Made by a program: the position numbers and the translations under genes. From IMG/VR virus record IMGVR_UViG_3300036851_000275, positions 1-49,479 of that record: a stretch of DNA of 49,479 bases, one strand, 5' to 3'. Shown one piece after another: positions 2,726-38,947 of the stretch; position 1 is the first letter of the stretch, and each line of letters starts with the position of its first letter. The notes below the pieces were generated by a model. It was not told where the DNA came from. It worked only from the letters and a program-made list of their open reading frames with translations, and made no database searches. The stretch is from a virus.

Positions 2726-3412
2726 ATGCCCAAAGGTGTCGAGGTCTACGTCGAGAACGGGTTCGCCGAAATCGACTTCGTCGACCGCAGACTGCGCGGC
2801 CCCGGCCTGCGCGCGCTGCTCGAGGTCACCCCTCCCGAGCTGGTAGAGACGTTGACCCGTTCCGGGCCGCGCCGCCGCTACCGGGTACCGACAGGGAACG
2901 CCGCCGAGGCGGGCCTGTTGGACAGCCCAGTGAAGTCGCTGCCGTCCGGCGATACGGGATCGGCCGACGCGCTGGCCGACGCGTCACCCGCCGGGGCGCG
3001 CCCCACTCCCCAGACCGTCAAAGACCGCGCCTACGGCAGCGGGCAGGGCACATACACAGGTCCACTGCGTCCCGGGTCCAGCGAAGGTTCTCAATCAGTG
3101 ACCTCCACCGAGGACGTGCTGGGCGGCACTTCCGTGCAAACCACGTTGGTACCGGGTAGCGGGACGGGCACCAAATCGGTGGCGCCGTCGCACGCCGAGG
3201 TGATTGAGCGCGTCAAGGCCGCAGCGACGCCGCCGCCCCCGCAGCCCGCCCCGGAACCTGTCGTCGTGCGCGGCCCGTGGCCCGACGGTGAACCATCGAC
3301 CGACTGGAAACGCGCCGAACTCGACGCCTACGCCAACCAGGTCAAACACCTCGACACCACCAGAGCGGCCAGCAAAGCCGACGTGGTCGAGCTGATTAAC
3401 ACTCACGCCTGA
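2726..3412 (+). CDS. Head-region protein with C-terminal HeH/SAP-like helical domain
   Basis: 228 residues. ATG at 2726 is chosen because AGGGAGG lies 5 bases upstream; a longer in-frame extension has no such site. The N-terminus (MPKGVEVYVENGFAEIDFVD) is followed by a low-complexity Pro/Ser/Thr-rich middle. The last ~35 residues (DWKRAELDAYANQ, then AASKADVVELI) match the short helix-extended-loop-helix (HeH/LEM-like) domain common in actinophage head proteins. Function is unproven. Its place between capsid and membrane block suggests a minor head or scaffold-associated role. Confidence 0.6.
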   Translation: MPKGVEVYVENGFAEIDFVDRRLRGPGLRALLEVTPPELVETLTRSGPRRRYRVPTGNAAEAGLLDSPVKSLPSGDTGSADALADASPAGARPTPQTVKDRAYGSGQGTYTGPLRPGSSEGSQSVTSTEDVLGGTSVQTTLVPGSGTGTKSVAPSHAEVIERVKAAATPPPPQPAPEPVVVRGPWPDGEPSTDWKRAELDAYANQVKHLDTTRAASKADVVELINTHA

Positions 3413-18843: not shown

Positions 18844-19914
18844 GTGACCCAACCTGCGCCGCCGCCGCGCCTAGACGAACCCCAAGCCGTCTCTGTGCAC
18901 ACCCACGACGGGATTCAGCTTTATGCGTTTCGTCCCGAGGATTTGATCTCGCTGACGTGGAGTCGGGATTTGCGTGATACCTCCCGTTGTGAACTGGTCG
19001 CGCCGCCACCCTGGGCGGATTTCGACCCGACCATCGACATCGTGCCGTGGCTGCACTGGGTCTCCGTCTGGAATGCCCGCGGCACTGATCTGCTGTGGAC
19101 GGGACCGATCCAGAAAGCGGTCGGTAACCGCAAAGCCCTGTCCATTTCGGCACGTGATGTGTCTGCTTACGCATCGCGTACCCGCACCCCTTTGACGAAG
19201 GCGTGGGATTCGGCCGACGCGAGCGTCATCGCCGGGGTGATGTGGGACATGATGATCGAGCTGCACGGCCTGAACGTCAACCCCATCCGACGCATCGACC
19301 CCGACGGCGACGCATTCGACTACAAGGTGAAAGCCGATGAGGCGATGCTCGAGGGCACCATCAAGGAACTCGAGGGTCTAGGGCTGCGGTGGACGGTGGT
19401 CGCCGGAACCCCGATTTTGGGGCCGGCTCCGAAGGAGCCGCTCGCGTCGCTGGGTGAGGCCGATTTCCTGGACGACGGGATCAGCCTCACCGTCGACGGG
19501 TCGGGCACGTTCAACGATGTGCTGCTGCGCGGTGGTGACGCTTTGTCGCGGGCGCATGTGCAGTTGGCTGGGCTGAATCTGCAAACCATCGTGAACGTCG
19601 ACAGCATGTTCGGGGTCAGCAATGTCGACCGGGCAACGTATCAGTACGCCCGCCATACCAGCAAGATCCGCTATTCGCTCGCGGTGCCGTCCGGGGCGAC
19701 GTTGCATCCTGAGGCGCCGGTTTCGCTGGACGAGCTCATTCCCAGTTCTCGGTTCGTGATCAGCGCGTTCGACCTGCGTTTCCTGATGGAGCTGGAGTCC
19801 GTCGATGTGTCGCGTTCCAGCGGGAATGCATCGGTACAGGTGACAATGGATTCCGTCACGGATGAGCTACCGGAGCTGTTGAAGCTTCGCAACACGTCCG
19901 GGTCACCCAGTTGA
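18844..19914 (+). CDS. Minor tail protein, tail-hub/Tal-like
   Basis: 356 residues from GTG. VHTHDGIQLYAFRPEDLISL, then WLHWVSVWNARGTDLLWTGP and LSISARDVSAYASR match the second actinophage minor tail gene (baseplate hub family). Bases 19840-19858 near its end are repeated exactly at 19915-19933, immediately after its stop and at the edge of an insertion-element remnant. The C-terminus may therefore have been reshaped by that event. Confidence 0.75.
   Translation: MTQPAPPPRLDEPQAVSVHTHDGIQLYAFRPEDLISLTWSRDLRDTSRCELVAPPPWADFDPTIDIVPWLHWVSVWNARGTDLLWTGPIQKAVGNRKALSISARDVSAYASRTRTPLTKAWDSADASVIAGVMWDMMIELHGLNVNPIRRIDPDGDAFDYKVKADEAMLEGTIKELEGLGLRWTVVAGTPILGPAPKEPLASLGEADFLDDGISLTVDGSGTFNDVLLRGGDALSRAHVQLAGLNLQTIVNVDSMFGVSNVDRATYQYARHTSKIRYSLAVPSGATLHPEAPVSLDELIPSSRFVISAFDLRFLMELESVDVSRSSGNASVQVTMDSVTDELPELLKLRNTSGSPS
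19840..19858. repeat. 19-base direct repeat, copy 1 (inside tail gene)
   Basis: Sequence GTGACAATGGATTCCGTCA. The second copy is 75 bases downstream, in the same reading phase. Flanking bases differ on both sides. Confidence 0.95.
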
Positions 19915-19933
19915 GTGACAATGGATTCCGTCA
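19915..19933. repeat. 19-base direct repeat, copy 2 (abuts element right end)
   Basis: Exact copy of 19840-19858. It ends precisely at the TTCA (minus strand, 19937-19934) that closes the element's right end, so on the minus strand it occupies the place of a TnpB guide. Confidence 0.95.
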
Positions 19934-20070
19934 TGAACCCCACGGATAAATCCAGGGGCTTGCGGGTCGCAAGTCCTACCCGGCGGGCAGGGTCACGCCG
20001 CGTGCGGCTGCATGACTGCAGCCCTGCTCGCGATGTTGCGGGCAGCGAAAGTATCTGCGGGACCAGCGAG
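19915..20070 (-). ncRNA. Candidate orphan omega RNA (reRNA) of a TnpB remnant
   Basis: In IS200/IS605 elements the 3' end of tnpB and the right end encode the guide RNA scaffold, and the flank supplies the guide. Here, on the minus strand after the tnpB stop, two hairpins remain: CTTGCG/CGCAAG (19973-19959, loop of 3) and CCCC...GGGG (19958-19938, with inner GGA/TCC). They are followed by TTCA and then 19 bases that recur in the adjacent gene. Expression is not shown and the 5' limit is arbitrary. Confidence 0.4.
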
Positions 20071-20159
20071 CCCACACGAAATGCAGCGGAAGTCGGCCCG
20101 GGCGGGACGGTTTCGTTTGTCGATATGTTGAAGTCGGGGAAATCTCGGAGAGTTCCCCG
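19934..20159 (-). mobile_element. Decayed IS200/IS605-type element (MITE-like)
   Basis: About 226 bases between two tail genes. The right end (minus-strand 3' side) has the characteristic AAGCCCC...GGGG hairpin, and the tnpB 3' end lies inside. At the other side a 7-bp hairpin, CGGGGAA/TTCCCCG (20135-20141 with 20053+100 = 20153-20159), may be the left-end palindrome. Transposase and most of tnpB are missing. Exact left boundary uncertain. Confidence 0.6.
19993..20128 (-). pseudogene. tnpB: tnpB 3'-terminal fragment
   Basis: The minus-strand frame reads HIDKRNRPARADFRCISCGL, then AGPADTFAARNIASRAAV and a stop at 19993. This is the C-terminal part of a TnpB (RuvC nuclease) zinc ribbon (FRCxxCG) with the final catalytic Asp of the AD-x-x-AA-x-NI motif. 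The first zinc-ribbon CxxC and everything upstream are gone: similarity stops at about 20128, where a different sequence begins. The longer frame back to 20454 is antisense to the next gene and not coding. Confidence 0.75.
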
Positions 20160-20423
20160 GTGAGCGGGCAGACGACGGGCCGTAAACCCGACACCGACGC
20201 GCAGTGGGCGCGTGACGTTGAGCAGCGGCTACGAACCTTGGAGAGCGGACCGGGAGCGATGCGGGTCGGGTCCTGGGTGATCGCCGACCGCGACGGCGAA
20301 CTGATCGCCACCACCACCGACGGCCGCAGGGTCCAGCTGACCAACCTGAACCCCGACCCAGAGAACGTAGCAACCCCGTTGGCCTCACCAACCCCGCCGA
20401 CCGTGCCGCAGCCGGGTAGGTAG
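20160..20423 (+). CDS. Small minor-tail-region protein
   Basis: 87 residues from GTG directly after the element's hairpin. It has a helical N-terminus (DAQWARDVEQRLRTLES), then VGSWVIADRDGELIATTTDG and a Pro-rich tail. Small proteins of this type follow the hub gene in many mycobacteriophages and are probably virion-associated. The insertion element may have replaced its original upstream region, including the SD. Confidence 0.55.
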   Translation: MSGQTTGRKPDTDAQWARDVEQRLRTLESGPGAMRVGSWVIADRDGELIATTTDGRRVQLTNLNPDPENVATPLASPTPPTVPQPGR

Positions 20424-20437
20424 TTAGGCTGCCACCT

Positions 20438-21073
20438 ATGACTGTGCCCATCATCTACCCGCGAGTATGTATCGACGAGAACCTGCTCGCCACCACCGCG
20501 GGGAAACTTCAGCTGCGGGCGCAGTCGGTTCCCCAGTGCGTAGTCGACCAGGTAGCCACCTCGACAGGTGACGGGTCACTGGTGATGACCCCCAACCTGC
20601 CGGGCAAGCTGCTCATCAACATGCAAAAGCAATGGACGAATAACACCACCCTGGACCAGATGGTGCTGATACGGATCACCCGCGGCCCCCGAACCATCAT
20701 CACCTCCAACCCAAACGCAATCCAGTTTCGTGACCGCTGGACATGGGCTATCGACGGACCCCCCGCGGAACCGGTCACCAGCGATATTCTCAACGGGCAG
20801 GTGGGGTGCGCCGTCGACCTGGGCACCAACAGTGTTGCCGAACCCAACCCCGGCCAGATGTGGATGTGGACCGATGTGCACAGCGCCGACGAGTGGGTCG
20901 GCCCGGTACCGGCGCGTTCATACCTGAAGGTCTGGTACAGGTGTTATGTGTGGACTCCACCACCGTGGAGCGATAACGCGAACAAAAACGCACCCCAGCA
21001 TTCAGCGTCAGCGAAGTACGCCCGCATGCAATTGTGGCGTTTCCCTCAGCAGGGCAATCTGGTGGCCGGATGA
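20438..21073 (+). CDS. Minor tail protein, first of three related genes
   Basis: 211 residues from ATG. Central motif VLIRITRGPRTIITSNPNAI then RDRWTWAIDG recurs in the next gene (VAVMVHRGPRSIVAQSPTTV, HDAWSWAIG). Both also share an end of the form VKVWYRxxVxTPxxW. These are tail-surface proteins of unknown detail in mycobacteriophages. ATGA overlap with the next gene. Confidence 0.6.
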   Translation: MTVPIIYPRVCIDENLLATTAGKLQLRAQSVPQCVVDQVATSTGDGSLVMTPNLPGKLLINMQKQWTNNTTLDQMVLIRITRGPRTIITSNPNAIQFRDRWTWAIDGPPAEPVTSDILNGQVGCAVDLGTNSVAEPNPGQMWMWTDVHSADEWVGPVPARSYLKVWYRCYVWTPPPWSDNANKNAPQHSASAKYARMQLWRFPQQGNLVAG

Positions 21074-28548: not shown

Positions 28549-29310
28549 TCACGTGAGGATGCCTGCTCGATCACCCTTGGCGATATTGCACCGCAGATGC
28601 GCTGTCACCAGGTTTGACCGTTCATGTGTGCCTCCCTTCGCTAGAGGGACGACGTGATCAAGACTTGCGAAGATCGGGTGGGGATACGTCACAGACCTAC
28701 TGACAGGTATGTCGGGATACAGGCATCCCGGGATCTGGCACCGCCACTCGTCCCGCTCGAAGATCTCCAGGGGCGGAACGTCTTCTATAAAGGCATCGAG
28801 CTCACGGGCTCGTCGGCGATGGCTTGCAAGACTGCTGATTGTCGCAGCTTTTTCAGGATTGGTTTGTCGCCATTGGCGATTATGTTCGGGATTGGCATCA
28901 CGCCAACGACGCTGCTTCTTGGAAATCTTCTCGGGATTCGTCTCCGCGTATCGGCGTACTCGTTCAATCACCTTCTCGCGGTTGGCTTCGTAATATTCTT
29001 GATTCCTTTGAAGCACGTTCTCGCGGTTTGCTTCATAGCGCTGGCGACTGCGCTGAGAAATTTCCTCACAGTTGGCTTCGTAGTATCGGCGTGCACGATC
29101 GGCATGGGCAGCTTTGCAGTCTTCGCAGCGGCAGCCGCGGTTGCTATAGCCATCTACCGTGCCGTGCCGGATTGGCGAATCCCGCTTTCTATCAGGCCCG
29201 CCACCACGGGGATCTCCATGCACTTTCCACCGGCGATAGTGCGCAGAGCACCACCCTCGCGCGAATCGGTTCTTGCCACAACCAGGAATGGAGCACATAA
29301 CATGGGACAC
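28549..29310 (-). CDS. HNH endonuclease, free-standing homing type
   Basis: 253 residues on the minus strand, against all surrounding late genes. An N-terminal zinc motif (CSIPGCGKNRFARGWCSAHY) precedes about five copies of a YYEANREKV-type helix repeat (residues ~75-145). An HNH nuclease end follows (LDHVVPLAKGGTHERSNLV, then LRCNIAKGDR). Such genes cut cognate intron- or gene-less DNA and spread by repair. It starts 83 bases before the next late gene and ends three bases from the previous one, so it looks like a clean insertion. Composition is less GC-rich than neighbours. Confidence 0.85.
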   Translation of the reverse strand: MSHVMCSIPGCGKNRFARGWCSAHYRRWKVHGDPRGGGPDRKRDSPIRHGTVDGYSNRGCRCEDCKAAHADRARRYYEANCEEISQRSRQRYEANRENVLQRNQEYYEANREKVIERVRRYAETNPEKISKKQRRWRDANPEHNRQWRQTNPEKAATISSLASHRRRARELDAFIEDVPPLEIFERDEWRCQIPGCLYPDIPVSRSVTYPHPIFASLDHVVPLAKGGTHERSNLVTAHLRCNIAKGDRAGILT

Positions 29311-38279: not shown

Positions 38280-38947
38280 GAACCTGGTCGATCGAAGAGT
38301 GTTTCGTGCGCGGCTATTCCCTCGCCGCTGTTGCCGCGCAACACATATTGGACGCGCTATGGCCACCCTTCGATGAGCCTGCGGCTGAGGAGTTCCTGCG
38401 GCGCGACGGTGCGGAACAGGCGGCCGAGCGGGAAGCCGATGATCTCGAAACGTGCTATTTCTGCGGCGATCCGACAGGCAGCATCATAGACACGGACTGC
38501 GGCGCAGAATACGTCTGCGATAAGTGCAGCATCCCAACCGAGCCCGGCCTGACCGACGATGAGCTCGTCGCTGTCCGCGGCTTGATCCAAGAGCGGTATG
38601 AGACTCCTGCCACCGACCACCTGGCAGGGGACAGCGCCGGGGCGGTGAGCGACGTCCCCCGATCGCCCGCCCCGGCGCACCCCAACTGGATCAACTGGGC
38701 GGTGCCGGCCATCTGCGAGGCCTTGACGGCACACACGCCAGAGCTCACGGAATCCGATGCCATCAGATGCGCCGATGAACTGACAGGCACCGTCTGCGGC
38801 AACTTCGACGACTGGCAGGAGTGGCGCGAACACGTCGGCCCGCGTATCGCGGTTGCGCTTGAAAACGGCACCGCCGCAACACCTTTACATCAGATGCGTG
38901 CCGCAGAACAACGCATCGACTCACGCCTCAACAAGTTTCAGAAGTAA
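38276..38947 (+). CDS. Early protein with zinc ribbon
   Basis: 223 residues. ETCYFCGDPTG and EYVCDKCSIP form a CxxC/CxxC zinc ribbon at ~60-85. The C-terminal part is helical (WAVPAICEALTAHTPELTES). No family recognised. Confidence 0.55.
   Translation: MRTWSIEECFVRGYSLAAVAAQHILDALWPPFDEPAAEEFLRRDGAEQAAEREADDLETCYFCGDPTGSIIDTDCGAEYVCDKCSIPTEPGLTDDELVAVRGLIQERYETPATDHLAGDSAGAVSDVPRSPAPAHPNWINWAVPAICEALTAHTPELTESDAIRCADELTGTVCGNFDDWQEWREHVGPRIAVALENGTAATPLHQMRAAEQRIDSRLNKFQK

What the first reader, a model, noticed from the sequence alone, without database searches (positions are those of the whole stretch)
19840..20159. Orphan TnpB right end whose guide matches a second site in the same phage
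Seen: a tnpB 3' fragment, two right-end hairpins, TTCA, and then a 19-base sequence that is an exact copy of bases 19840-19858 in the adjacent tail gene. The identity begins exactly at the TTCA boundary and is the length of a TnpB guide. Known: in IS200/IS605 elements this region encodes the omega RNA and the flank is the guide. Inference: a guide-RNA gene without its nuclease persists in a phage and could, with a TnpB supplied by host or rival phage, address the tail-gene locus. Alternatives: a duplication at the insertion junction, or simple decay.
Basis: partly seen in the sequence, partly recalled or inferred. Interest (0 to 1): 0.85.

Follow-up and report, generated by a model that had tools for sequence, protein, structure and literature searches.

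The report
Nuclease-less TnpB transposon remnant in phage
A phage carries the 230-base shrunken remains of a TnpB transposon that kept an apparently intact guide-RNA scaffold but lost its nuclease; its "guide" matches a nearby tail gene only because 15 bases were copied locally, and that tail-gene site lacks the motif the nuclease needs, so this is an ordinary, if tidy, relic.

Summary
The raw observation holds: a tnpB 3' end, right-end hairpins, and an exact 19-base repeat (19840-19858 = 19915-19933). The boundary was misplaced. Those four bases form a covarying pseudoknot. A covariance model built without the window finds the scaffold at 20024-19930 (E = 6e-18), scoring like intact elements, so the guide matches the tail gene over 15 bases, not 19. 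It is probably not an orphan right end: the other edge is TCAC (antisense of the next gene's GTGA start), the target motif of this TnpB group, so this looks like an internally deleted element inserted at a tail/next-gene junction. Phage relatives lack it. The tail copy lies in a conserved coding motif and is the original; the second copy is a short templated duplication. At the tail site the motif position reads TGAC, the element's own end, not TCAC, so RNA-guided cutting there is not expected. No nuclease, transposase or promoter was found in the record. Verdict: a recently decayed, non-autonomous IS605-type (TnpB-only) element with an intact scaffold. Function in trans is not excluded, but nothing supports it.

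The parts
19930..20159 (-). Internally deleted TnpB-only (IS605/IS1341-type) element, 230 nt, inserted after TCAC
   Evidence: right end fixed by alignment and covariance model; left edge by TCAC at the conserved next-gene start; weak left-end similarity to L011/L012, about 1-2% of TCAC sites as good
20160..20163 (-). Insertion/TAM motif TCAC (antisense of the GTGA start of the next gene)
   Evidence: TCAC precedes the left end in 10 of 12 relatives, background 12.5%; same as AmaTnpB TAM (PMC10278001)
20143..20159 (-). Residual left-end sequence (putative); the left-end hairpin is lost
   Evidence: 9 of 14 bases match L012 left end after TCAC; only suggestive
19993..20127 (-). tnpB 3' end, C-terminal zinc-ribbon remnant (HIDKRNRPARADFRCISCGLAGPAD...), first CxxC lost
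   Evidence: 79% DNA identity to L012 over 20127-19926
19930..20024 (-). omegaRNA scaffold core, 95 nt, helices intact
   Evidence: covariance model R1, 76.8 bits, E 5.9e-18, full length; intact close relatives score 69-78 bits
20011..20016 (-). Pseudoknot strand 1, GTCATG in the loop of the 5' hairpin
   Evidence: covariation in 12 relatives, permutation 0 of 20000
19930..19935 (-). Pseudoknot strand 2, CATGAC, the right end of the element
19915..19929 (-). Flank in the guide position that matches the tail gene: GGAATCCATTGTCAC (second copy, derived)
   Evidence: lies outside the tail gene, between its stop and the element
19840..19854 (-). Matching 15 bases inside the tail gene (original copy, codes VTMDS on +)
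   Evidence: conserved coding motif in phage relatives
19855..19858 (-). Motif position beside the tail-gene match: TGAC, not TCAC
   Evidence: the differing base is the wobble base of a Val codon (GTC; GTG would give TCAC)
18844..19914 (+). Minor tail protein gene, intact
20160..20423 (+). Next small structural gene, start codon preserved by the insertion

Best explanation
A TnpB-only IS605-type element inserted on the minus strand after TCAC, which here is the antisense of the GTGA start of the gene behind the tail gene. Its left-end hairpin and most of tnpB were then deleted, leaving a 230-nt non-autonomous relic whose omegaRNA scaffold is still complete. The guide position is filled by 15 bases that are a short templated duplication of the tail gene (GTGA or GTCA microhomology at the joints), made before or after the insertion. 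Shown: the scaffold, its end point, its pseudoknot, the loss of the nuclease, the conserved gene junction without the insert in relatives. Inferred: that TCAC here is the insertion site rather than a deletion joint, the order of events, and that the RNA is now inert (no nuclease, no recognisable promoter, no TAM at the second site).
For: Right end and scaffold. Family insertion rule TCAC|element|no target duplication, with uninterrupted reading frames across the rejoined flanks in L161 and L165 and a restored stop/start overlap in L012. Relatives have tail and next gene overlapping or abutting with no second copy. Tail copy is the conserved one. No TnpB catalytic domain or Y1 transposase in the record. 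No sigma-70-like promoter or terminator at 19800-20450. A second nuclease-less relic with an intact scaffold exists in another viral contig (L190), so such decay recurs.
Against: The scaffold scores as high as intact elements (76.8 against up to 77.6 bits), which could also mean selection rather than recent loss. The left end is only weakly recognisable, so the far edge might be a deletion joint. No near relative of this phage was found, so the empty site was not seen directly. Among 10 intact relatives none has a second guide copy in its locus, so the duplication is unusual.
Confidence: 0.75

Rival explanations
1. Guide-RNA gene kept by selection: the phage expresses the omegaRNA and a TnpB from the host or another phage uses it, acting on the tail locus of this phage or of rivals.
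For: Scaffold fully intact although tnpB is gone. TnpB-family proteins about 45-53% identical to L012 TnpB occur in 10 of 399 sampled genomes of one actinobacterial order. A guide RNA supplied in trans by a locus with a broken protein gene has been suggested for TldR loci (PMC13418256).
Against: TAM position at the tail site is TGAC, not TCAC; no promoter-like site; no conservation in phage relatives; no host known; the matched 15 bases are explained by local duplication.
Confidence: 0.05
2. Transposition with flank carry-over: the element once sat in the tail gene of a donor phage at TCAC|GGAATCC..., and moved with 15 bases of right flank that end in TCAC, landing after the TCAC of the gene joint.
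For: The 15 bases end in TCAC and the unit sits exactly after TCAC, so both joints carry the motif. A GTG codon at the tail site would give the TAM; several relatives have GTG there.
Against: Right-end cleavage lies at a fixed distance from the terminal hairpin in all relatives; the tail gene here has TGAC; a GTGA-microhomology duplication explains the same joints without it.
Confidence: 0.08
3. 5'-truncated element fragment captured by illegitimate recombination at microhomology, with no transposition at this site.
For: Left-end similarity is weak; GTGA occurs at both edges; L190 shows a truncated relic without a clear left end.
Against: TCAC lies exactly at the conserved start-codon edge, and some left-end similarity remains.
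Confidence: 0.12
4. Chance or assembly artefact.
For: Single metagenomic record, no near relative.
Against: 19-base exact repeat expected 0.01 times even at up to 3 mismatches; covariance E 6e-18; both flanking genes intact.
Confidence: 0.02

Closest known systems
TnpB-only IS200/IS605 (IS1341-type) elements with omegaRNA/reRNA (L012, L011 in viral contigs; ISDra2 as the studied model)
   Same: tnpB 3' end, terminal hairpins, scaffold end followed by flank as guide, pseudoknot between scaffold end and an upstream loop as in ISDra2 (PMC10097598)
   Different: Most of tnpB and the left-end hairpin are missing; 230 nt instead of about 1.2 kb
AmaTnpB (Alicyclobacillus macrosporangiidus), TAM TCAC
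   Same: Same four-base motif before the element/target (PMC10278001)
   Different: Not shown here to be the same clade; AmaTnpB is an active nuclease
Non-autonomous IS200/IS605 derivatives (MITE/PATE-like; from general knowledge)
   Same: Short element without transposase gene
   Different: Left-end hairpin absent, so mobilisation in trans is doubtful
TldR, phage-encoded RNA-guided repressors derived from TnpB (PMC13418256)
   Same: Guide RNA of TnpB origin in a phage, guide matching a structural gene
   Different: No TldR/TnpB protein here, the match is in the phage's own gene, no suitable TAM, no association conserved in relatives

Membership tests
TnpB/omegaRNA element (IS605/IS1341-type) | omegaRNA scaffold with family structure at the right end | tested here: met
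TnpB/omegaRNA element (IS605/IS1341-type) | Insertion 3' of the family motif without target duplication | tested here: inconclusive
   TCAC at the edge fits; empty site of a close relative not available
TnpB/omegaRNA element (IS605/IS1341-type) | Left-end subterminal hairpin | tested here: not met
   only 13-17 nt of possible left end; therefore filed as a remnant of such an element, not as a complete one
TnpB/omegaRNA element (IS605/IS1341-type) | RNA-guided nuclease with RuvC domain | tested here: not met
   no PF01385 in the record; only the C-terminal 45-55 codons remain
TnpB/omegaRNA element (IS605/IS1341-type) | Y1 transposase TnpA (in cis; absent also from TnpB-only subgroup) | tested here: not met
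   no PF01797 in the record
Functional guide to a second site | TAM next to the matching sequence | tested here: not met
   TGAC instead of TCAC at 19858-19855
Functional guide to a second site | Expressed RNA | not testable with these tools
   no promoter-like site; no RNA data
TldR-type domesticated RNA-guided regulator | TnpB-derived RNA-binding protein with dead nuclease | tested here: not met

The most novel reading that the evidence does not exclude
The phage keeps a nuclease-free omegaRNA gene that works with a TnpB supplied in trans. The tail gene, once a TCAC-flanked target of this guide, escaped by a synonymous Val codon change (GTG to GTC) that turned the TAM into the element's own 'self' end motif, while rival phages with GTG would remain targets.
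Probability: 0.04. Interest if true: 0.8.

Novelty: new member of a known kind. Interest (0 to 1): 0.3.

Why it matters
It shows how easily a 'guide that matches a second site' arises from decay plus a short local duplication, and why the exact scaffold end and the TAM must be settled before proposing RNA-guided action. The covarying pseudoknot and the model made here give a direct way to find nuclease-less omegaRNA remnants in viral contigs; at least one other exists (L190). If such RNAs prove to be expressed, their use by TnpBs supplied in trans becomes testable.

Tried and rejected
Rfam search of the window: no match at gathering thresholds. blastn of the element against phages and plasmids: none / one weak hit. 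Search for the parental element in 399 genomes of one actinobacterial order and 395 of the class: no close copy; best was the already known Streptosporangium element. Exact 19-mer in all viral contigs: none. Idea that the 245-bp insert (230 + 15) is a DNA copy of a whole omegaRNA with its guide (ISDra2 omegaRNA expressed at 247 nt with a 16-nt guide, PMC10097598): dropped once the far edge was seen to be TCAC at the gene start, which an ordinary insertion explains. Idea that the duplication starts at a TnpB cut site 15 nt from the TAM: possible but not separable from GTGA microhomology. TAM-flanked full match to the guide elsewhere in the window: none (the best TCAC-flanked site, 38745-38759, has 2 mismatches over the 15-base pattern).

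Full report
What is there. The window is a 49,479-base viral record of a tailed actinobacteriophage; its tail gene 18844-19914 and the following genes match Mycobacterium and Gordonia phages at about 50-60% amino-acid identity, but no near relative was found. Between the tail gene stop (19912-19914) and the next small gene (GTG at 20160) lie 245 extra bases.

The repeat. GTGACAATGGATTCCGTCA occurs at 19840-19858 and 19915-19933, exactly, where about 0.01 matches are expected even with three mismatches. The first copy codes VTMDSV in a C-terminal motif that relatives share (VTMDS/VSMDSV...LPEL); in relatives the tail gene and the next gene overlap by GTGA/ATGA or nearly abut, mostly without a spacer and never with a second copy (one relative, L007, has an unrelated spacer). 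So the tail copy is the original and the second copy is derived.

The remnant. On the minus strand 20127-19993 is the 3' end of a tnpB gene, 79% identical in DNA to a full TnpB element in another viral contig (L012). Aligning right ends of relatives shows that the conserved end is not TTCA but a sequence closing in TGAC, four bases further on. The last six bases of this end pair with the loop of a GGGC..GCCC hairpin about 90 nt upstream, and this pairing covaries: the sum of longest complementary runs over 20 elements is 119 against a permuted mean of 82.7, reached by 0 of 20,000 permutations (related sequences make this number optimistic). On a 12-sequence alignment the three helices are 96.9% paired against 76% in shuffles, with 10 pairs changed on both sides. 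ISDra2 TnpB omegaRNA has the same kind of pseudoknot (PMC10097598). A covariance model of the 12 relatives, built without the window, finds exactly one match in the window: 20024-19930 minus, full length, 76.8 bits, E 5.9e-18; intact close relatives score 71-78 bits. Hence the scaffold is undamaged and ends at 19930, and the guide position starts at 19929: GGAATCCATTGTCAC, 15 bases shared with the tail gene, then TCAAC..., which is not shared.

The insertion site. In relatives the left end follows TCAC (10 of 12 tested, background 12.5%; also L044). When the flanks are rejoined after TCAC and after the final TGAC, reading frames run uninterrupted across the joint in L161 and L165, and the stop/start overlap of two phage genes is restored in L012. 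So the rule is TCAC|element|flank with no duplication. TCAC is also the measured TAM of AmaTnpB (PMC10278001). In the window, the edge of the foreign DNA at 20159/20160 is exactly TCAC on the minus strand, being the antisense of the GTGA start of the next gene, which is conserved in relatives. The 14 bases after it resemble the L011/L012 left end better than nearly all of 495 TCAC sites of the window (6 do as well), which is suggestive only; the left-end hairpin itself is gone. I therefore read the object as an internally deleted element of 230 nt, with a truncated fragment joined by microhomology as a rival.

Can the guide act on the tail gene? The sequence beside the tail-gene match is TGAC, where TCAC is needed. 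TGAC is the element's own end motif; in SisTnpB7 a target flanked by that element's end motif was not cleaved (PMC11043419). The one differing base is the wobble base of a Val codon (GTC; GTG in several relatives), so the extra four identical bases of the 19-base repeat need little more than one coincidence at a degenerate position. The record has no TnpB catalytic domain and no Y1 transposase, no promoter-like site at the locus, and phage relatives have no scaffold there. An intact close TnpB was not found in host genomes: the best in 399 genomes of one actinobacterial order are 45-53% identical to L012 TnpB; the host itself is unknown.

Origin of the 15 bases. They carry GTGA/TCAC at both joints. 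A short templated insertion primed by GTGA (before element insertion) or by the GTCA of the right end (after it) explains them; carry-over of flank from a donor insertion in a tail gene is possible but needs an unusual right-end cleavage. The data do not separate these. The guides of ten intact relatives have no second copy in their loci, so the doubling is peculiar to this case, not a family feature.

Verdict. A recently decayed, nuclease-less TnpB-only element with an intact omegaRNA scaffold: a remnant of a known kind, with a tidy but explicable coincidence. Shown: repeat, scaffold, end point, missing nuclease, original versus derived copy. Inferred: insertion after TCAC at this site, order of events, lack of function.

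Noticed in passing
L012 about 2007-2011 and 3220-3235; L156 and L157 junctions; window 20160-20163: Several elements of this TnpB group sit on the antisense of GTGA at gene stop/start joints, leaving the downstream start codon intact; in L012 the right end read antisense (GTCATGA) gives the upstream gene one Ser and a new stop. The motif TCAC may favour near-neutral insertion at phage gene overlaps.
   Followed up: partly
L190 3994-4270 (minus): A second viral contig (IMGVR_UViG_3300049617_000064) carries only the last 64 or so conserved codons of this tnpB with a full omegaRNA scaffold (69.4 bits): another nuclease-less remnant.
   Followed up: partly
L007 6105-6213: At the same tail/next-gene joint another phage has an unrelated spacer of about 110 bases.
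   Followed up: no
L189 12859-12952 and 10442-10524: Two different omegaRNA scaffolds of this family about 2.4 kb apart in one short viral contig, the second with a tnpB running off the contig end.
   Followed up: no
window 28549-29310 (minus): An ORF with repeated YEANREN-like motifs and an HNH-like C-terminus lies antisense to its neighbours in the lysis region; possibly a homing endonuclease or another mobile gene.
   Followed up: no
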